A stretch of 64,000 nt of DNA, from the NCBI GenBank assembly GCA_021904315.1, contig CM038921.1, forward strand, positions 15,164,590 through 15,228,589, written 5' to 3'. Made by a program: the position numbers and the translations under genes. Source of the DNA: Sphagnum magellanicum. Taxonomy: Eukaryota; Streptophyta; Sphagnopsida; Sphagnales; Sphagnaceae. The notes under the pieces were generated by a model, which saw only the letters and a program-made list of their open reading frames with translations, was not told the DNA's origin and searched no databases. This document shows, in pieces, positions 36,509 through 63,938 of this stretch; positions within the stretch are counted from its first letter, which is position 1, and each line of letters opens with the position of its first letter.

Positions 36509-39500
36509 TTATGTGAGCACACAGATGTGTTTACAATGTGAACCTTGTAGATAGTAGGTAGGACCACTTGGCCTAGTGATTGGATCTTCTGTGTATGTGT
36601 CCATCCCTTTAACTGGGTAAGCTTGCACATCTGCAAGTGCTTCTCCTTCATACTCCACCACACTCTCCCAATTCTCATATGCGACTTTCACTAGCTTGTC
36701 CACATACACCTGTATACATACCAAAAAAATCACAAAAATTGCTAAGCGACTCCATTCTATCACATAGGCATATGATTAAGTTCTACAAGGTTAGTACTTG
36801 TTCACCAAATGTTTCAAGTTCAGACCTAGTAACAATACTATGATAATCCTTACCATGAATTAACACCAACATGTAACTATGAATTTGCAGCACATCACCA
36901 AAAAATGCTGATACTACCAGAGGACAAAGACTAGGTTGTTTAATCTGCATGCAATTCCTAGCTACTTTCATTATCCACCTGCATGGTCTCAAACCTTCTA
37001 TGCATGTACAGAATTGTACACCATATCTTGGTAGAGTCTTCAAAAGACTGCCAAAGACATCAAGTTCTCAAACATGGTGCAGTGGGAGGTCCTCTTCAAT
37101 CCAAATTTCCTACCTTCTCACTTTCAGAGAGAGAGTCAACAGACATGTATGAGCCATCAGCAATAAGCCCCATGAGCTGGAAGATGTTGTTGAAGATGAC
37201 ACCAATATTTTGATTGTCATCAGCATAGTAGACATGAAGCTTGCCCGATAAAATACATGTCTTGGCATGCTCCACTGTGCTATCCCACATTCTATTTGAC
37301 ATGCCACCACCCAAAATCTGGTCCAGAGAAACACATACTATATGAGAAGCCAAAGACTCCGATGCAAACAGAAGGTCTACCACTAATCATGCCTATCATA
37401 TAAGTTCACCAACTACTTGGAATACCAGCATTAACAATCAGAATATGTCCATACAAGAGTAGTGGTACAACAGGAACTTACATTCCGGAGTCGTTGTGGA
37501 TCCATGACAACCAATCGAAGAAAATCCTCAACTGTCCATAGGCCTGCCTTGTTGAGACGCTTATGAAAAGCACCATCCTTCCCTATCTTATCCAGTCGCC
37601 ACACCTCATCATGCAGTGCAGGCGGATAGTGTTTCTTGTACACTGCATCCACAAAGAATACACAAGAACAAAAGAACCAGACCTCATGAACAATTTGACA
37701 TCAAAACACTGGAGAGATGCAGGTTTTGAGTGGTGAAACTTGATCCATGCACAAACAAATATTAGTTCCGTCATTTCATTTCACTGGTTGACACCAACAA
37801 AGCAATTTTGGTGGGTATCATCAAAACATGCTCTCTGCTGGATAATTTGAAACTTTCTGTTGGAGTTCCAGGAATGGCTTACACAAGACTTGTCAATTAT
37901 CACCCGTGTATGCAGACAATACAGGCACTGAGCAATTGAAAACCACAGAATTCACAACATTGCATGCATGGCAGCCACTTGGTATGTTCCTCAAAGGCAG
38001 GGTATTCAGGATCAATAACACCTAAAACCCTAAGTTAACCTGCTTTATAAACACAACCTTGCACAAGTGATGAGGGAGTCTGTTGAAATCAATCACATGA
38101 CACAGTAGGCCCTACTTCAGGTAAACATCCTGTCTGTGACAATCAAAACCATTCATGAACTCTGGAACCAACTTCAGAAAGGAAGTAGCAAGAGAGTAAC
38201 GTACACTCTCCACGATGATCTTTCACAGTAAAGGCCTCAGTCACAGCTTCTCGGATCTGTAAACCATCCAAAATGCCTTCTGACACTTTCACCCCAATCC
38301 GAAACTTGCGACTGCGAATCCAGCTTGAATTGTCAGTGAATGTCAGCTCGCCTAGTATTGCTACTCCATTCTTGAGCGCAACAGATAGTTCTCCAGTGAG
38401 CAGTGGTCTTTTTCCATCTCGCTCCCGAACCACAGCATTCTCAAACTCCTCCTGAGACCAATTTTCTTCATCATCTGCAGCAAAGTCACCTTCCAGGACT
38501 ACAATATCAAGCTTTGCAGATGCTTCTGGACCTGAACTTACAATCTGGCCTGTATCAGCATCCAGTAATGCCACATGAATTCCAGATCCTTGCTCTCCGT
38601 CCACCTTGCTTCCAGTAAAAAGGGGCAATGCTAACTTGTTCCTGAACTGTAGCCGTAAATTCCGCTGGTTTGGCCCCTGTATCCTCTTTGGCAAAGACCT
38701 ATGACAGACAGTCCAACATTTAGCCCAGTTTTTTTCTCTGAAGCAAGTCAGAAACATTTGAGACAAGATGTTGCTAAACACTCAGGACAAATTTTAGAAA
38801 TTAAGGATAGTATGATTTATACCGGAACCCCACTTTGGGTGGTCGAAAGTTCACAAGTGCACGCTCAACCTCTTCTCCCACCTGTAGTTCACTCATACAT
38901 TTTTAACTTCTGGAGTAAATCAATAGGTTGAGCCTGAGTGCTAGAATAGATGAAGGAAGAGCAAACTAATAATTCCTTGGATCGAATCTTCCCTGTCTTT
39001 CACTACAAAGGCCATGTGCATCAAAAAAGAAGAATTGTCAAATAGAGAAATCACTAATATTGCTACAGTGTGCATACAACTCACTGGAATCAGATAGAAA
39101 AGGAATTCCACAAAATGATTGAACAGATGCTTACCACTTTGCGAAGTAACGGTTCCAAAGAGGAGCACACCTTTTGAAAACTATCAATCTTCACCGCCTC
39201 CACAATAACTCTGCAAGGCGGTCTGAAATTAGATGGACGTTTCTGTCATTTCTTAGGTAAGATTCCATAGATCTACCATGATGCAGTACATAACAACACC
39301 CCCCAATGTAGACTAGACAAACAACGTCCTGAGACAGCAATGAGCTTGGTTGAAAGGCTGGGAAACAAAGTCACAGGTGCTGCATGGTTACAGAATGTGG
39401 ATGGACTATTTGTTTGAAGACTGAATTTCCAAGATTCCTTAGGGTCAAATAGCTGGAAGAGAATGGTAAAAAAAGCTTCAAATGGAAGAAAATCAGACAC

Positions 39501-49888: not shown

Positions 49889-50956
49889 ATGGTTCGGTTT
49901 GCAATGCAGACATTTGCAACCTCATCAACTTCTCCTCATCATCAGAGGCCAACCAAACGAAGTCGAAAAGAACAACATGCAAATCAAGTGCAACTGCAAG
50001 TCAATGAACAACAATATTTGCCATTACCATCATTACTTACCCATCCTTTAATTGATCAAGTGCCAAACAACGATCATCAATTAACAGCTACCTTTGATCC
50101 TGATACTCTCGATTGCAACATTTGCATGGAAGCACTTTCTAACCCCATCTTCCAGGTATAGTAACACCCATTTCCAGCTTTGAGAGTTTGTTTATAATTC
50201 TGAATCCATAATGCCTTTTCTCTGCCTCAAAGTTAGAGATATCTAGGAACTGACACAATTATAAAAGGGTTAATAATGCAGTGTTCAAATGGTCATATTG
50301 CTTGTGCAAGTTGTTGTCAAAAACTCAACAATGTTTGTGCCTCATGTTCCAAGCCCACGGGAAAAATTAGATGCTTGGCAATTGAGAATGTGATCGACTC
50401 TTTGCACATGTGTTGCAAGTATGCTGAGTACGGTTGCTCACAAATGCTGAAATTCACAAAAAAGAAAGCACATGAGACTTCATGTCCTTACATACCATAC
50501 ACATGTCCCGTGTTAGGTTGTTCCTTCTCAGCTGCTGCCACATCTTTTCCAAATCACTTCTATGGTATTCATCAAACCCGAACTGTGGACTTCCAATATG
50601 ATGTTTGGTTCACAATTGTGTTGAACCCAAGTGACCAGCATGTGGTTTTGAGAGCTGTAGACATGTTGTTTCTTCTCCACTATGATCTTAATCATGCTTT
50701 GGGAAACATTGTCTATGTCACTTTCTTTGGAGGAATTCATCGAGAAGAATTCTTCTCGTATCATTTGGAAGTGAAATCTGGGCAAACAAGATTAACCATG
50801 GAGACCATACCTCGCAGTATTCTACAAGATGATAAACATTCTACTAATTTTGTGCTCATTCCCAGGCCTTTGAATGCCCCTCAAGGCCCAGCTCAAATTG
50901 AACTCTCTTTTCATCAACCCGGTGAAGCAATATCTGGTTTGCAAATCAACAAATAG
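49889..50956 (+). CDS. SINA-like RING E3 ubiquitin-protein ligase
   Basis: Two exons, 49889-50155 and 50282-50956, join at CAG/GTATAG and AATGCAG in phase 0 to give 313 residues. The intron splits the RING finger after PIFQ. The N-terminal ~70 residues are polar and low-complexity. The RING follows: C76-x2-C79, C90, H94, C97, C100 and C108-x2-C111, in DCNICMEALSNPIFQ and CSNGHIACASCCQKL. Next is the SIAH-type zinc finger with C134, C141, H153, C157, C164, C169, H181 and H186, then the SINA substrate-binding beta-sandwich (VDFQYDVWFTIVLNP, IVYVTFFGGIHREEFFSYHL). SINA proteins act as dimeric E3 ligases that target proteins for proteasomal breakdown in development and stress responses. No lesion is visible. 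It is the only intact gene inside the AT-rich part. Confidence 0.9.
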
Positions 50957-55265: not shown

Positions 55266-56432
55266 GAGGCAGGAAGGAAGGATTCTGAGAGGCATGGTTC
55301 TTATGAGAGATCTTCGGCTGCTTGCTCATTGATTTTGCGCAACACAAGCCTGAACAATAGAACATGGGCCGTTCTTCTCCTTCTGATATGCTGCGAGCAT
55401 TACCAGGAGTTGATCGACATACTCGATGCAAAGAACTCAAGATCTTCTAAGAGAATGATAGATTTCTGCACTTCCCATCCAGCAATTGATCCATTACAAC
55501 CACCAATGATGGAAACTGCAACTGTGACCAAGAAAACGCGAGAGGAGGGTTCTTGCACTCAGGTTGTGGTAGGTTGTTGTGCTTTGCTGAGACCAAGAGC
55601 TTGGCTACAGAAGAAGGATTGAAGCAAACTGCAGAGCATCCACAGGAAGAAGAAGATGTAGAACAGTTGCCATTCTCATGGTTTCTGTGATGTGCAGAGC
55701 TTGGAAGAAGAATCAGCTGAAATTGGGAAGATAAGATTTTGAGATTGCTGTGACTTTGCAAGCAGCCAGCTGCCAGCCTGCCATCATCAAAGCTTGAAGC
55801 ACCGTGAGAGTGGCTTCACCATACTCATCATGCATTACACAAGAGAATCTGCCATTGCTTAGAAAAATAAATCCAAAGTCTTTTTCCATTGTAAACCGGA
55901 TCTCTTTTTGTATTGAGAGTTATACAGTGGCAGTATGCACTGTGAAATTCCATATACATTGAACAATAACAGTGATCCACAACATGTAGTAATGCATCAA
56001 TTCTCATTTCCTTCCGGAAGAGATGCTGGACTTGCAAAAGTTCTAATGGCCAGTTCTACCAGGTCTCTGGGTTTTGTGCATGCTTTCCACAGAGGTACTG
56101 AAGCACATCTGCAGAGATACCAACAAAGCCCTGCAGATATACTAACAAAGCCCTGCAGAGATACCACCAAAGCCCTGCAGAGAGACAATGAAGCTCCTAA
56201 GCCACTTTGCACATTTTATGACGATTTTGGGTGATCCAATGATCTGCCGCAACTATACCTGGTTTGACTATTTTTGTTTCCATCTAGCGTCTCCTCAGGG
56301 ATGGATTCTCAAACCCACAACCAGTCTGTGGTAGTCATTTGAACTGCTACTTGTATTTTGAAATACCATAAGAAGATTCTTCCTTTTTCTAGTACCAAGA
56401 TTGCTTGCATCTATCTGATTTGCTCTTCTGTT
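55266..56432. other. Intergenic DNA between the reductase pseudogene and the PEPC gene
   Basis: A 22-bp tandem repeat (CTGCAGAGATACCAACAAAGCC-like) starts at 56109, 56131, 56153 and 56175. Otherwise no gene is seen. The stretch next to 56432 should contain the PEPC 3' untranslated region. Confidence 0.6.
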
Positions 56433-59400
56433 TCAACCAGTGTTGCGCATGTTGCTGGCAATTGCTTTGATGGTTCTTAGCAATGGTTTCTCCCACAAAG
56501 CTTTACTGGTGTCAGATGCTGTTATGTCTCTCTGTCGACCAAGTAGGATAATCTGCAGCAAAACACACCCCCACAAAAAGGAACAATTTCCTTAGCTACA
56601 AATGCAGGATATGATGCTCTTTGTCAGGATATGACGCTCTTATGCCTCAGATTTGGGTGCAGATCATTTCAGTGAGACTTTGATCAGAGACTTAAGACTT
56701 ATTATGTACCCCGAGACAAGGATGCAGACTGTCCTTACAAGGTTAGTGTACTTGCTTGTCAATGCGCTTTGTGTTTGCAAGTAGATAGATGCGCCTTCAG
56801 AATTTTGAGCTCAACCCAATATGTCATACTTCAAAAGGTGATAGTAGAATACATACATAACCAGTAAATAGATGACAAAAAACCACTGGGTAGTAACCAA
56901 CAACCCATACCTGGAGATGATTCAAGGGGTCAAGGTACTTGCGTCGTGTATCAAAAGACCTTTCCAAGCGCTCATTATCACTCAGCAATCGGTTTTGTTG
57001 AGAAATCATCAGAAGCTGTCAATGCACAAAGAGACAATCTCAAAAGAGTTAGGCTTGTCTAGGTTCCAGGAAAATACAATACACAAAACTTGAAAACTCA
57101 GATCTAACCTTGAGAAGCCCAACCCAAATCCTCCATTTGATGAAGCTGATCTCAGGTGCAACCCAGCAGGCACAGGGGTTGCATATGTGAACAACAATCA
57201 AAGGACAATGCAGAAACAAAAATCCTGGAACTGTTATTGTCCAATTGGATTCAACAATACCTGTCCCCTTGTCAGGAAATACTCTTGTGCCACCAGATCA
57301 TACACGAGCTTTTGGGTGATGCGGTTTCTGTGCCAAAAGAAGATTTGGGTTTTTTCAGTACTGTACACAAAACAATGTCTGTGGTGTGTCATACCACAAA
57401 GTAGGAGAATTGAACAAAGGAAACTGAAGAAAGCTTTGTAAAGTTATTGCAGGAACATACCCACAGAGGCGTGCATATTCCTGTGCGATCTCCATAGATG
57501 CTTTGAACAATGACATCTGTACACTCACCAACAAAAAACCCCAACCAAAAAAACTGACTTTGAGAATGCAATGTGATGCCACTAGGGGCATGACACCAGT
57601 GTGAGTAACTTCTCTACAGCAGCAAGAACAGTGCAGACTAAAAGAGAAACACTTACACGAACGTTAGACAGAAAGTTGTGGAAGAAAGGCCAATCTGTAT
57701 ACATCTGCTGCAGCTCCCGGATGCGCTCGGGATTCTCCTTTGTGTATTGCACCATGCCAGTTCCAACACCATACCAGGCTGGTATTGTATGCCGTGACTG
57801 CCATCACAAATCCATGACCCCGATACAATAAAACCAGCATATGTATGTATGCACTCTTCAAATCAGTAAAACTGTATTCATGATCTTTACTTACTGATTC
57901 ATTTGTAAATTGGTGGTAATGAGACAGAAGAAGAAATATGCAAACTAAACTACTAACCTGCGCCCAACCAAAGACCCAAGGAATGGCACGCAATGATGAT
58001 TTGTCACGCACGCCAGCTTTGCGGCGTGCTGGGCGACTGCCAATATTTATTAGACTGATTTCATTTACAACTGTTGCTTCATAGAAGTAGTCATAAAAGC
58101 CTTCAGTTTCATCTGTCAGTTCACGGTAATGCTTCTCTGCTGCCATTGCCAGGTCCTCCATGATTGCAAAGTACTGGTGCATGCACCCACACAAAGCAAA
58201 GAGTCAATCCAAAGTTCATCAAGACTACCTATGATCGAAAGGCAAAAGCCATGGTGGCACACATCAACACAAAACAACCCTGGAAGAGATGGCACACTAT
58301 GAGAGAGCAAGAGACCTTAGGATTGTCAGAACCTCGGGATTGAGTAGTGGGATGACTGGCCTTCAAGAGTCCTGTGATACCCACCTGTGAACCATCCATC
58401 AGACACAAGGCAAATGGATAGTAAATCCACAAGTTGAACAAGAGCGCATCACAGCGTTAAGTGCCCACAAGCTGAAATTGGTAGGTGCATGGCAGAAACA
58501 AAATGTTATGGGTGGGTGATTTTGGTCTTTTTCTTACAGTCAACTCATAGGCAGCAGTTTGGGCGTTGCCATATCGATACGTGATAACCTCACCCTGTTC
58601 TGTGAACTTGATCTTGCCATTGACGCTCCCTGGTGGCTGTTTCATTTCAATTGACAATATCAAATGAGCACCATGTCGTGTTGACACATAACAAGAAAGA
58701 CACTGAGCAGGTTCAGAAACACTCTGAGCAAGCTTTTGAAATTGTAGTAAGTTGTGAGAGTCCAGGGCAATTCAGTCTTTCTTTTGTACAAAAGTGACTA
58801 CCCAAGGTGTGCTTCAAAGCTCCTGTCGTAGTGAGGACAGAGTCCTGTTGAGCATTGAAAATGACAGAATGTTTACTAAGTGTAATTTTGCACATTTTCT
58901 AACTGCAGCTGGAGGAAGAGCATCATCCCCCATTTCAGCAGTTTACCTGTGAGAGAATACTCTCATGCGTAGGTCCAGCTCCACGACCAACTGTACCACC
59001 ACGGCCATGGAAGATGCATGAATTCACTCCTGCATCCTTTGTCAGCTGCTGAATCACACACTGTGCCTTGTAGAGATTGTATGCACTTGCAGTAATGCCA
59101 CCATCTTTGCAAGAATCAGAGTAACCCAACATAACCTCCTGCAAACTCATCAAGTAATTATGTCAACCGTCCCACGCTTCTTCACACCCAGATGCTTTGA
59201 TTACAGTCTTTGAGACAATAAGCCAGTGACCACATTGCAAGAAGTTCATGATGCACAAAACAAAGATGTGCTATATTGTAAGATCTTGGGAAGGAGGAAA
59301 GACCAGATCTAAAGTGAATGCTACAATTCTGAAACCAGGAAGAAAGTGTAGATAGAAATGGACAACACAAGGAGAGAAAAACAACCTGAACACCCCCAGA

Positions 59401-62400
59401 TGCCAGAAGGATTTCCTTATATGTATTGTTATTAAGCAGTGAATGTAATGCTTGTGGCATATTCTGCAACCCATCATAGAAAAAACCAAAGAATTCATTA
59501 TTTCTTGTATTTGTTTCCTCCACTTCCAAAAGCAAAAGAACTTGTTTTCAACTTCTGAAATTGTCATTGGCAAGATGTTTGCACTCAAAGTGTCAGTTTG
59601 AAGCTTCTTTACACCTTTCAATCAATTTTTCTTACATCTCTCCCACAAAGAATGTCATGTGTTATTATCCCATTACCTCCAAATCTGGAATGGTTTCAAA
59701 GAGAGGTGCCACCACCAGTCTTGCTACCCAATCACCAGATGCCTTCTTCACCAGAAGGTCCTTGCAGCAAAACCACCCAAGAAACAACACCTCCATCACG
59801 TGGGATGCCACCCTTGTCATGGAGATAACATATGAGGCAATCGACTTTCGTGATACAGTTTCCATGATGTCAGCACATGCGAAGTACAGATCCACCACCT
59901 GCTTTGTCGCCTCAGACATTGATGGCAGAAGTGCCTGGAGTCAAAACCAAATACACACTCAGTCCAAAAGGACTAATATTCTGCTCAAGTGAGCAAGGCA
60001 ATGGGTGCAAGGCAAAAAGGAGTATCACCTGGAAGCAAAAAAGGTGACATCTAGGTGTAGATGATTGCTTGTACCTCAATCTTGTCAAAGGGTGGAGGTG
60101 TTGCCACTGTTTCTGTGAGCAGTTTCATTCGCTCTGTCTCAGATAGAGAGCTGTAATTCTCCACCAAACCCAAAAGCCGCAAAATCTCATCTGTCGCCTG
60201 CAACCCAAAGAATCAGATGTGTTATGAAGGCATCAAGGATTTCACCAGAGTCACATGTCAGATCCACTGCAAAGGCAGCACATCCTGCAATCATGCTTTG
60301 ATTACATATGTATGTATGTTCCTGAACCAGTAGAGGCCATTTGCATGTTGAACCTGAGAGTGTATTGTTGACTCTTGCCGAACATCAAGAGAACAGCAGT
60401 AGAATCCGAAAGTTTCTGCCAAACGGACCAAGTCTTTCAGCTTGCTGTCAGCAAGTTGGGCATCTCCGTTGCTCCTCAAAGAAGTCTGAAAGTCCACCAG
60501 AATTTGGTTTAATACTCCTTGTCATTATGTGATTTATGGTGTGTTTTTTTTCACAGTTTCTAGAATGAGTTTCTCTCAGGTTGCAAAAATCAGAAATGCA
60601 AATGAACCCAAGTTTTCTCCTCTTTGCATTTTTCCATTCAATAGTTATGAAACGCAGCTCACATTAGATTCAGATCATATTGAGAAGAAAAGGCAAAAGA
60701 CTGACTAACATCAATGAAGCGCAGGTCCTTCAGAAACTCCTCTTCATTAACATATGCATCCTTTTTCGGATCCAACCCCGGAATCTCGTCCAAGTTGTAT
60801 TCAATATCAAAGAGGAGCTGTTCAACATCTCCAATGCCTCAAAAAAGGTCCAAGATTTGCACAGAAGAAATCTCCACAACAGCATGTGAAGATATGTAAC
60901 ATCTGCATGCCTCAATATAGCATTCACCCAATCATCACTTTTCTCATTTAAGAACTACCCATTTTCAGATTAACAGGTCCTTACTTGGTCTGCCTCTCCA
61001 AGTTCACGCAAGCGTGCATTCACAATGCGCAGATTTTGTTCAAGGCGGTGGCGCATCACCAGCAGTTTCAGTCGGTATGGTTCCTGCACAGCACATGCCC
61101 AATCCAAAAGTGTTTGACTAGTGGATGCTTGCTGCTGCTCAACCCACATAGTGTAGAAACAGAAGCTCAATCTCACATACAACACAGGAGGAAAAATCAC
61201 AAGGTTCTTCTGGATGCACTATGAAAACTACATTATCTTTTCCATATAACTATTGAGAACTTCTCCAATACAGAGAAAGAGTGAGTGCCTGAAATGGATA
61301 CCAACAGTGCACTACAATGGGTTTTGCAGAGGAAAGAGCAGAAGCTTACATGCTCATACATGGCACTGCTAAATTGGAGAGCTGGGATCATCTGAATCAT
61401 TTCCATATCTGTCACAAGGCTGTCCAGTAGCTCTGGTGAAACTTTGCAAATCAAAACAGAGTGTGTCAATATATCCTGCAATGGTGCAAACAAAGGCAGA
61501 TTGTGTCAAATTCCATAACAGCAGAGTGCATGCAATGTGGATGGACTGGACCTTCACAAGCATTCAGTGCTGCACTTGGGTAGGTAAGTATGTGCACCCC
61601 ATTGGAAGTCTTGTTCAAACAACACACAGAGAGGCTTACAAAATGGAGACTGTGGAAGGAGCACCAACAATCACCTGACAAGCACGGCAGCGTCGAATGT
61701 ATTCTGCTAAAATCAATCGACTTGCCAGGAGTGCTGCCATGATCGTGGTTTCCGGAAGTACTAACCCATGCCCCCCACAAGAGTAGCCAATGAATCATGC
61801 ATAGATTGTCATACCATCCTCATGACCTTCACATAGATTTTACCAAAGAAATTGACAAATGCAAAATCATGCTATTGCCATAATAGAACTCACCATAAGG
61901 ATTACCATCACGATCACCACCAATCCATGATCCAAATCTGATGAAGCTCGGTAAGGTGACATGCTCATTTGGATATATAGCCTGGATGCAATCAGGAAAA
62001 AAATCAAATGAGGGAAAAAAAAAGAAAGGTGCGAAAAGACAGCATCATGAAGACGACTACAACTACAGCTGCACTTGTTTCTTCTCAAGGTAGAACTCTT
62101 TCACAGCCAAAAAGACACAGTAATGTTCTCTCCCTGTGTGTAAGAGTAGCTCACATTCAGTGAGTTTTCGGCATATCTGTAAGTTGTGCAAACAGCCTCG
62201 AAGAGAGAGAATCGAAAGTAATCAAGTCCTGTGATAATCTCTTCCAGCACCGTTGGTTTCTTGGTGCGCATCTCATCTGTCCTCCACAGAATCTCAATCT
62301 ATGAAAAAAAATGCATCACCACACAACAACCCAGTTCATGGTTTTAGTTCAAATGTCTCCCAGCAAGATTGAGGTTCAAATCCACGATCACTTGCAATGA

Positions 62401-63938
62401 GCACCATCAGCACACACCTCCTACAACTCAAGCTCCTGGCTAGATGCTGATCTGAGCTGGAGAACAGCAATGTTCAGATGAGGGTGTAAGATCGAATCTC
62501 TGAGGACAAACCTCTGCTTCCACTTCTGCTTCCACCTCCACTTTCTGTGCAGGACTGAGCCGTGGATCCTGCAATGATTTGTCCAACAAGTAAGGCAGAG
62601 AGAAACATGAACTTTATCATCAGCTGGGAAGCAGGAAATTGCAAGTCAAGAGAAGAAGAAGAAGAAGATGTGCAACCTCACGATTACTGCAGAGCAAAAA
62701 GATTCGATGTAAACATGTGAGAACTTCTCTGCGTCGTGCCTCTGTTGGGTGTGCTGTAAACACTGGATTGTACTGCCAAAAAACACAACAAGAAACACAT
62801 CATCAACCAGGGTTCTCATCACTAGCAACATCAAGAGACATGGGAGTATTGTCATCTTCCATGGTCACAGAGACCTGGTGAAGCTTGCTTGTCCTGGGGA
62901 TCAGCACATAATCTTTGCTAATGAATTGTTTTTAGACTGTACCTCTATCCTGTTCAGTAAAGCCTGGAGATCTTCTGCACCCACATTTGCCTCCTTGAAA
63001 AGACGCAGTGTATGGTCAAAAGATGCAGGCCACAGTGGTCTTGCATTTCTGCTAGCCCACACCTGAAACCCGAGCACTTCCAGGCTAACAATCAAAATGG
63101 GGTTCATTTTAGGCATAGCTGAAGACTGCAGTTCATCATCATCATCACTACTGCAGAAGAATGTATCAACAAGAATCTTAGCTGTGGTTGTCAAATGTGC
63201 TGCTGCAAACCAAAGTGCGGCAAAACAGAAAAAAACATTCCACCGTTTTCTACCTCTTCTCGACGCCTTCGATGACTATGTGCTTCATCAGCAACATTCA
63301 GAAGTGACGAGTACAAGTAGAAAATCCTGATTACAGCAGTCATCTGCAACAAGAGATAAGATGTGTAGATAGATTAGGGAAGAGAAAAAAATTACCACAT
63401 TCACATCTGACACAGTAAAAGAGTGAGAGTGAGAGAGAGAGAGTGGGGGATTCATGACAGGCTGCCATGATCCATCCATATCCTTTAGCAAAAACCAATA
63501 CTAACTTCACTCTCAGGATAACACTAGCAAAATCTTTATTTGCAGTTCTCATTCAATGTTCAAGCAATAAGGACATACCAAGGGCTCTTCCATCTTCTCA
63601 ATGTAGCGCAGCAAGTCCGCTCTCTTACGTGGATCCTCCTTGTTGCGCAATTGCTCAAACCCATTTTGCAAAAGCAATGCCTTGACACCCACAACATATG
63701 AAACATCATTACTGCAGTGCACTTTTTCCTACTCCATGATTCCCCTTCTTCTTTCCTAACATGGCAGCACTTCTCTCTCTCTCTCTCTCTCTCTGAAAAG
63801 AAGGAAATGTGAGGACTACAAATCTCTGTTCCATTAAAAGCAGTGGAGAAAAAGGGACTTCATACTCACTGCCTCAACCACTTGAGCTTGCCCATCTGCC
63901 TGCACTACCTTATCCAATGTGCTGATCAGAAATGTCAC
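56433..63938 (-). CDS. Phosphoenolpyruvate carboxylase of bacterial-like type, 5' end outside window
   Basis: The enzyme makes oxaloacetate from phosphoenolpyruvate and bicarbonate. The 25 visible exons, all in frame with GT-AG borders, give 946 residues: 63938-63870, 63680-63579, 63343-63254, 63062-62943, 62772-62677, 62568-62512, 62298-62155, 61981-61894, 61760-61675, 61475-61350, 61083-60985, 60817-60710, 60485-60354, 60197-60075, 59934-59677, 59463-59386, 59138-58947, 58636-58538, 58384-58316, 58173-57958, 57797-57657, 57516-57461, 57327-57261, 57015-56911, 56552-56433. Landmarks in visible numbering: [11 protein letters not shown] with catalytic His (132-142), [12 protein letters not shown] (243-254), [10 protein letters not shown] (597-606), [14 protein letters not shown] (635-648), IGSRPAR (756-762) and C-terminal [12 protein letters not shown], the FRFSLFEAV region and [15 protein letters not shown] differ from plant-type PEPC (SDSNKDSG) and from plant bacterial-type PEPC (SDSGKDAG); they resemble some bacterial PEPCs as I remember them. 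The regulatory N-terminus is not visible. No lesion was found. Confidence 0.93.
63768..63795. repeat. CT microsatellite in a PEPC intron
   Basis: About 14 CT units lie in the intron between the first two visible PEPC exons. A shorter GA tract (63420-63442) lies in the next intron. Confidence 0.85.

What the first reader, a model, noticed from the sequence alone, without database searches (positions are those of the whole stretch)
56433..63938. A PEPC that fits neither known plant class
All 25 visible exons are open and keep phase, so the gene looks functional. Its motifs differ from both established plant forms. Plant-type PEPC carries GYSDSNKDSG, and plant/algal bacterial-type PEPC carries GYSDSGKDAG; here it is [10 protein letters not shown] followed by [12 protein letters not shown]. 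The [24 protein letters not shown] and [11 protein letters not shown] regions and the RNTG end resemble PEPCs of certain bacteria. Either plants of this lineage hold an old third PEPC lineage, or a bacterial gene was acquired and later gained introns.
Basis: partly seen in the sequence, partly recalled or inferred. Interest (0 to 1): 0.85.

Follow-up and report, generated by a model that had tools for sequence, protein, structure and literature searches.

The report
Moss PEPC acquired from bacteria
A moss chromosome carries an intact, intron-filled gene for the carbon-fixing enzyme PEPC whose nearest known relatives are bacterial enzymes and not the moss's own plant PEPCs, so it was most likely taken up from a bacterium long ago and apparently kept in use.

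Summary
Confirmed: 25 exons on the minus strand, 63938-56433, all GT-AG and in frame, encode 946 residues of PEPC; the 5' end lies beyond the window. The host is a 439-Mb plant genome, very likely Sphagnum divinum, which also holds canonical PTPC (QNTG) and BTPC (136-residue insert, RNTG) genes. The window gene is neither. It falls inside a mainly gammaproteobacterial PEPC clade (100/100; identity 45% on average, 50% at most, against 30-32% to own PTPC, BTPC and E. coli PEPC). Grouping with BTPC, with PTPC, or with both plus E. coli is rejected (AU p 1.4e-9, 2e-65, 3e-5), and so is a tree with the eight sampled bacterial clade rows as one clade without it (p 0.007). Thirteen known active-site or effector residues are kept; decayed copies of part of the gene suggest constraint, not decisively. 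Best reading: old bacteria-to-plant transfer, later intron gain, anaplerotic PEPC. Prior art: a 2012 study apparently placed a Physcomitrella PEPC (A9SLH0) among bacteria. So this is a further case of a known kind. Expression, spread in other plants and location in the cell were not testable here.

The parts
63870..63938 (-). exon 1 of those visible ([12 protein letters not shown]...); a further 5' exon lies beyond the window
63579..63680 (-). exon 2
63254..63343 (-). exon 3
62943..63062 (-). exon 4
   Evidence: decayed copies on C4 and C28
62677..62772 (-). exon 5, TAHPTE with His135 (E. coli His138)
62512..62568 (-). exon 6
62155..62298 (-). exon 7, [15 protein letters not shown]...FRFSLFEAV
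61894..61981 (-). exon 8, [12 protein letters not shown]
61675..61760 (-). exon 9 (preceded by a phase-1 intron)
61350..61475 (-). exon 10
60985..61083 (-). exon 11
60710..60817 (-). exon 12
60354..60485 (-). exon 13, LDVRQES with Arg431 (E. coli Arg396)
60075..60197 (-). exon 14
59677..59934 (-). exon 15, PLFET with Glu560 (E. coli Glu506)
59386..59463 (-). exon 16
58947..59138 (-). exon 17, [22 protein letters not shown] and [14 protein letters not shown] (Asp600, Lys603, His636, Arg638, Arg644)
58538..58636 (-). exon 18, [17 protein letters not shown]
58316..58384 (-). exon 19
57958..58173 (-). exon 20, [11 protein letters not shown]...LRAIPWVF (Arg759, Arg774)
57657..57797 (-). exon 21
57461..57516 (-). 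exon 22
57261..57327 (-). exon 23 (preceded by a phase-2 intron)
56911..57015 (-). exon 24
56433..56552 (-). exon 25, ends [10 protein letters not shown] and stop
62161..63216 (-). stretch (part of intron 3 to most of exon 7) of which two decayed genomic copies exist on contigs C4 and C28

Best explanation
This is a PEP carboxylase that an ancestor of this moss acquired from a bacterium with the '[11 protein letters not shown]' form of the enzyme, a form found here mainly in Gammaproteobacteria. In the nucleus it gained the 24 visible introns and at least one more upstream. It presumably carboxylates PEP to oxaloacetate as an anaplerotic enzyme. The plant phosphorylation motif was not found and the BTPC insert is missing, so bacterial-style allosteric control is expected in place of PEPC kinase or the class-2 complex. 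Shown here: gene structure, chromosomal context, placement in the tree, kept active-site residues. Suggested: constraint relative to decayed copies. Inferred: direction and age of the transfer, intron gain, activity, regulation, expression.
For: Careful ML tree (47 of 89 collected rows, 908 columns): window gene in one clade with 29 bacterial rows at 100/100; own BTPC, own PTPC and E. coli together at 100/100 elsewhere. AU tests on 14 hand-picked rows: with BTPC p 1.4e-9, with PTPC p 2e-65, with BTPC+PTPC+E. coli p 2.9e-5. In a second set of 14 rows with basal clade members, the 8 bacterial clade rows as one clade without the moss gene are rejected, p 0.0068, and moss gene + 5 core rows get 96/91. 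In 369 gammaproteobacterial genomes 229 matched, best full-length identity 50%. The window has 11 of 13 residues found only in the clade and 24 of 28 clade residues where BTPC and PTPC share another one. No sign of a mosaic: mean clade identity beats E. coli, BTPC, PTPC and the mean of other bacteria in 10 of 11 segments. 13 of 13 usable active-site and effector positions identical to E. coli (14 asked). In 137 codons copied to C4 and C28, polarised replacements are 3 on the gene's branch and 8 on the copies' shared branch, with 9 and 10 more private to the copies.
Against: The bacterial rows were found by similarity to this gene, which enriches the clade. The five core gamma rows as a clade without the moss gene are not rejected (p 0.208; p 0.161), and the sister row L027 (99/89) is not stable (70/90, another place), so the donor is open. 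The end branch is long (1.3) with at most 50% identity. Overall exon divergence between gene and decayed copies (0.102, 0.102) is not below intron divergence (0.084, 0.097), so the case for constraint rests on the polarised replacements. Two otherwise invariant residues are changed. No RNA, enzyme or other-plant data.
Confidence: 0.85

Rival explanations
1. An ancient third PEPC inherited vertically from an early eukaryote or alga (itself bacterial in origin) and lost in most plants; the moss merely retained it.
For: At most 50% identity to any bacterium found and many introns fit great age; one intron position agrees exactly with the own PTPC C6 out of 10 junctions, in a doubtful part of the alignment, and a second (before IQAAFRTDE / IEILWRTDE) agrees by eye.
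Against: The gene nests inside the bacterial clade above the Chloroflexi, alpha and Lysobacterales rows (p 0.0068 for the alternative); by my own estimate (no call) about 0.3 shared intron positions are expected by chance, so one or two is weak evidence.
Confidence: 0.12
2. A diverged member of the known plant bacterial-type class (BTPC).
For: RNTG end; passes NCBIfam's PRK00009.1 model, the family by which PMC8784020 called BTPC (passage).
Against: Rejected with delta lnL 290, p 1.4e-9; lacks the 136-residue BTPC insert; two canonical BTPC genes exist in the same genome.
Confidence: 0.01
3. Bacterial contamination or a recent, dead insertion.
For: Nearest known relatives are bacterial.
Against: 25 exons with GT-AG introns, 18.2-Mb contig, plant-family neighbour ORFs, at most 50% identity, older decayed partial copies elsewhere in the genome.
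Confidence: 0.01
4. A PEPC-fold gene kept for a role other than carboxylation (regulatory subunit or altered substrate).
For: Two of 66 columns invariant in the other rows are changed (W612Y next to the GYSDS motif, G646A in the glycine-rich loop); possible long N-terminal extension.
Against: 13 of 13 usable active-site and effector positions kept.
Confidence: 0.07

Closest known systems
Bacterial PEPC of the [11 protein letters not shown] clade, mainly Gammaproteobacteria (Thiohalomonas, Halochromatium, Thiodiazotropha, Methylomonas, Halothiobacillus and unnamed MAGs)
   Same: Full-length match, 45% identity on average over 29 rows and 50% at most, clade signature, RNTG end, placement in the tree
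   Different: The bacterial rows are single open frames; the moss gene has 25 or more exons and differs at W612Y and G646A
Physcomitrella patens A9SLH0 (Peng et al. 2012, PMC3521007)
   Same: A moss PEPC that, by my count of the paper's Table 1, is one of its 19 non-bacterial sequences inside bacterial branches (text parts 1-3 of 4 seen; passages); probably the orthologue
   Different: Its sequence and the figure were not at hand, so orthology and exact place are untested; the text seen does not discuss it by name
Plant bacterial-type PEPC (BTPC)
   Same: Ends RNTG; same active-site residues
   Different: No 136-residue insert, different clade, [10 protein letters not shown] in place of GYSDSGKDAG
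Plant-type PEPC (PTPC)
   Same: Same active-site residues; 32% identity to own C6 gene
   Different: RNTG in place of QNTG, no SIDAQ motif in the 946 residues, different clade

Membership tests
PEP carboxylase (PF00311) | full-length match with active-site His, Arg, Lys, Asp, Glu residues | tested here: met
PEP carboxylase (PF00311) | carboxylase activity | not testable with these tools
   needs recombinant enzyme
plant-type PEPC (PTPC) | C-terminal QNTG (criterion as in PMC4196954, passage) | tested here: not met
   RNTG; QNTG in the own C6 and C14 genes
plant-type PEPC (PTPC) | N-terminal SIDAQ phosphorylation motif (recalled) | tested here: inconclusive
   absent from the 946 residues and, by eye, from the 5' frames printed; present in own C6 PTPC; true start of the window gene unproven
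plant-type PEPC (PTPC) | placement with PTPC | tested here: not met
   AU p 2e-65
plant bacterial-type PEPC (BTPC) | C-terminal (R/K)NTG (PMC4196954, passage) | tested here: met
   also a bacterial trait
plant bacterial-type PEPC (BTPC) | disordered insert of about 130 residues (size recalled) | tested here: not met
   136 residues of own BTPC without counterpart
plant bacterial-type PEPC (BTPC) | placement with BTPC | tested here: not met
   AU p 1.4e-9
[11 protein letters not shown] bacterial PEPC clade | clade placement | tested here: met
   100/100; nested among the sampled members, p 0.0068
[11 protein letters not shown] bacterial PEPC clade | clade-only residues | tested here: met
   11 of 13
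horizontally acquired nuclear gene | absence from sister plant lineages or patchy presence | not testable with these tools
   no other plant genome held
horizontally acquired nuclear gene | integration in a plant chromosome with introns | tested here: met

The most novel reading that the evidence does not exclude
Mosses (or early land plants) hold a third, functional PEPC class of gammaproteobacterial origin, possibly sent to the plastid by a long serine- and threonine-rich N-terminal extension, which would give peat mosses a second, differently regulated compartment of PEP carboxylation.
Probability: 0.15. Interest if true: 0.7.

Novelty: new member of a known kind. Interest (0 to 1): 0.47.

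Why it matters
Plant PEPC surveys sort genes into two classes, and common criteria would misfile this one: an (R/K)NTG end plus a PRK00009 hit would call it BTPC. It is a clear candidate for a central-metabolism enzyme taken from bacteria by a moss and then filled with introns. It makes testable whether such an enzyme escapes PEPC-kinase control and what a plant gains from a third PEPC.

Tried and rejected
Looked for close prokaryotic copies with window-specific peptides: of 6 pattern matches in genome contigs none was a relative; nothing matched in viral contigs. Looked for closer donors in the phylum of the Chloroflexi genome (143 of 301 genomes matched, best 49% over the last 354 residues) and the class of the Magnetospirillum genome (33 of 289, best 52% over that part). 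Those two best are L066's and L072's own genomes, already in the tree at 41% and 43% over their full matched length; the others were not measured over the whole length, so a closer donor there is not excluded. Looked for similarity between introns: none at the setting used. Compared intron positions with own PTPC C6: 1 of 10 junctions exact, in a doubtful part of the alignment, and one more by eye; not taken as common descent. Rfam: nothing at gathering score in the window. PMC8784020 counts PEPC-domain genes outside both classes in an alga, bryophytes and ferns but also in spruce, pineapple, rice and maize, and says the spruce ones may be fragments (passages), so I do not use them as evidence. 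The AU tests on 47 rows did not finish and were run on two sets of 14 hand-picked rows. Rows dropped before the tree: 18 of the 80 loci; then 47 of 89 rows used. Rows L107-L121 were taken from stop to stop (some residues upstream of the true start) and cut to 960 when longer than 1000. Own PTPC rows are incomplete joins (at least one exon missing in C6, more in C14). Own C18 and C2 genes were fetched but not read in full. Structure prediction and fold search were not run. On checking, three things were mended: the count of active-site residues, the claim of constraint (exon divergence told), and the confidence, lowered from 0.87 to 0.85 for that reason.
Full report
Observation. Reading the minus strand of 63938-56433, 25 exons join with GT-AG introns of 108-358 bases and no stop or frameshift, giving 946 residues and a stop. 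Twenty-two of 24 introns lie in phase 0, more than the share of a little over half usual in plants (recalled). Pfam PF00311 covers 4-946 and NCBIfam NF000584/PRK00009.1 covers 2-946 above its cut-off. The reference motif given for plant-type PEPC is not: the four solved plant enzymes shown and both plant classes in this genome carry GYSDSGKDAG.

Host and context. The window is part of an 18.2-Mb contig (C15) of a 438,994,042-base genome in 31 contigs. The S. divinum assembly is 439 Mb (PMC9946827, passages), so the host is very likely that peat moss; this is an inference from size. The window also holds a Calmodulin_bind (PF07887) ORF and a Sina_ZnF ORF. Beyond the window, an exon at window-equivalent 64175-64053 (L015 2643-2765) joins exon 1 in frame. 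In a codon model trained on this gene and the own BTPCs it scores 0.40 (exon pieces 0.12 to 0.45, intron pieces -0.31 to 0.03). An open Ser/Thr-rich stretch further up (about 64774-64430) scores 0.13, the low edge of the exon range. The protein start is not settled: 987 residues from the ATG in that exon, or over 1,100 if the extension belongs to it.

The other PEPCs of the genome. Contigs C16 and C19 carry BTPC genes, single open frames of 1066 and 1068 residues with RNTG ends. C14 and C6 carry PTPC genes with QNTG ends. C18 and C2 match exon by exon and were not read in full. C3 holds a partial gene and a decayed one. Over aligned residues the window protein is 31.9% identical to the BTPC C16, 31.9% to the PTPC C6, 30.1% to E. 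coli PEPC, and 45% on average (maximum 50%) to 29 rows of a bacterial clade.

Bacterial relatives. The top rows (41-48% identity) are mostly Gammaproteobacteria: Thiohalomonas, Chromatiales, Halochromatium, Thiodiazotropha, Methylophaga, Methylomonas, Halothiobacillus, Cocleimonas, Thiomargarita and many unnamed MAGs. A Magnetospirillum, a Burkholderiales MAG and a Chloroflexi MAG are among them; Psychrobacter and an alphaproteobacterial MAG lie at 38-40%. Bacillota, beta- and other alphaproteobacteria, an actinobacterium, a cyanobacterium and an armatimonad follow at 32-37%. Most clade rows read GYSDS[C/S/A]KDGG, usually followed by I (L070 has KDAG). In 369 gammaproteobacterial genomes 229 matched, best full-length identity 50%, so no near donor is known here. 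Two further sets gave 143 of 301 and 33 of 289 genomes with a match; their best rows were the already known L066 and L072 genomes.

Tree. With 47 rows and 908 columns the window gene lies in the clade at 100/100 and next to L027 at 99/89, while own BTPC, own PTPC and E. coli form another group at 100/100 (the quick tree agrees on the clade). AU tests on 14 rows reject the moss gene with BTPC (p 1.4e-9), with PTPC (p 2e-65) and with BTPC, PTPC and E. coli together (p 2.9e-5); they do not reject the five gamma rows as a clade without it (p 0.208). With three basal clade rows added, the eight bacterial clade rows without the moss gene are rejected as one clade (p 0.0068), the moss gene with the five core rows has 96/91, and those five alone are again not rejected (p 0.161). 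So it is nested in the sampled bacterial clade, beside or within its core gammaproteobacterial part; its sister row is not stable between sets. It has 24 of 28 clade-fixed residues where BTPC and PTPC share another one (1 plant-like, 3 neither), and 11 of 13 residues found only in the clade. No segment points to recombination with the plant forms; in residues 431-516 E. coli (0.35) exceeds the clade mean (0.30) but not its best row (0.37).

Function and constraint. Fourteen recalled E. coli positions were asked. One (647) is not the residue I recalled and was set aside; the other 13 (His138, Arg396, Glu506, Asp543, Lys546, His579, Arg581, Arg587, Arg699, Arg713, Lys773, Arg832, Asn881) are identical in the window protein. 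Of 134 columns invariant in the clade the window differs at 4; of 66 invariant in all other rows at 2 (W612Y, G646A). Contigs C4 and C28 carry the same 1.06-kb piece of the gene at 89% identity, inside a 3.2-kb unit that both share at 93.6%. These copies have stops and have lost parts of TAHPTE. Between them exons and introns diverged alike (0.066 and 0.052); between gene and copies exons (0.102, 0.102) are not less diverged than introns (0.084, 0.097), which taken alone shows no constraint. In the 137 copied codons, replacements shared by both copies are 8 with the bacterial rows siding with the gene, 3 siding with the copies and 3 uninformative; 9 and 10 are private to the copies and one site differs in both. 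By that count the gene changed at 3 sites against 17 or 18 on the path to each copy. This suggests constraint on the gene; it is no proof of expression.

Mechanism. Most likely it carboxylates PEP with bicarbonate to oxaloacetate. The missing SIDAQ motif (946 residues; 5' frames by eye) and missing BTPC insert argue against PEPC kinase control and the class-2 complex. Whether it is cytosolic or plastidic is open.

Known or new. Peng et al. 2012 (PMC3521007; text parts 1-3 of 4; passages) report 19 non-bacterial sequences inside bacterial branches. By my count of Table 1 these are 15 haloarchaeal rows plus Physcomitrella A9SLH0, poplar, castor and Tetrahymena; the figure is not held. PMC8566536 (passages), PMC8100219 (passages), PMC4196954 (passages) and PMC12301720 (passages) work with two plant or green-algal classes. 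The listings of the searches (open-licence papers; not every hit listed) showed no named third plant class. I therefore file this as a further case of a known kind, a horizontally acquired moss gene, and keep the bolder reading in the section on the most novel reading.

Limits. Clade rows were found by similarity to this gene; no other plant genome, transcript or enzyme data were at hand; own PTPC rows are incomplete; the donor is not identified below the clade.

Noticed in passing
G000 C4:26640234 (L024) and C28:10798 (L025); source window 63216-62161: Two dispersed, decayed copies of a 1.06-kb piece of this gene sit inside a 3.2-kb unit that both loci share at 93.6% identity, as if captured by a mobile element; copy number could not be counted because the search machine was busy.
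   Followed up: partly
L016 (C16:7320500-7326500) and L017 (C19:2731000-2737000): Both BTPC genes of this moss are single uninterrupted open frames (1066 and 1068 residues), whereas the bacterial-like gene has 25 or more exons.
   Followed up: no
window 56433-63938: 22 of 24 introns are in phase 0, a strong bias; introns show no similarity to each other at the setting used.
   Followed up: partly
L015 3020-3364 (window-equivalent about 64430-64774): Open Ser/Thr-rich stretch upstream that may encode an N-terminal extension (possible transit peptide) of the PEPC.
   Followed up: partly
window 56109-56183: 22-base tandem repeat (3.4 copies) 250 bases 3' of the gene's stop codon.
   Followed up: no
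L023 (C3:3394366-3394509): Decayed PTPC-like fragments.
   Followed up: no
window 38143-38781 (-) and 50276-50956 (+): Calmodulin-binding (PF07887) and Sina zinc-finger ORFs, fitting a land-plant nuclear context.
   Followed up: no
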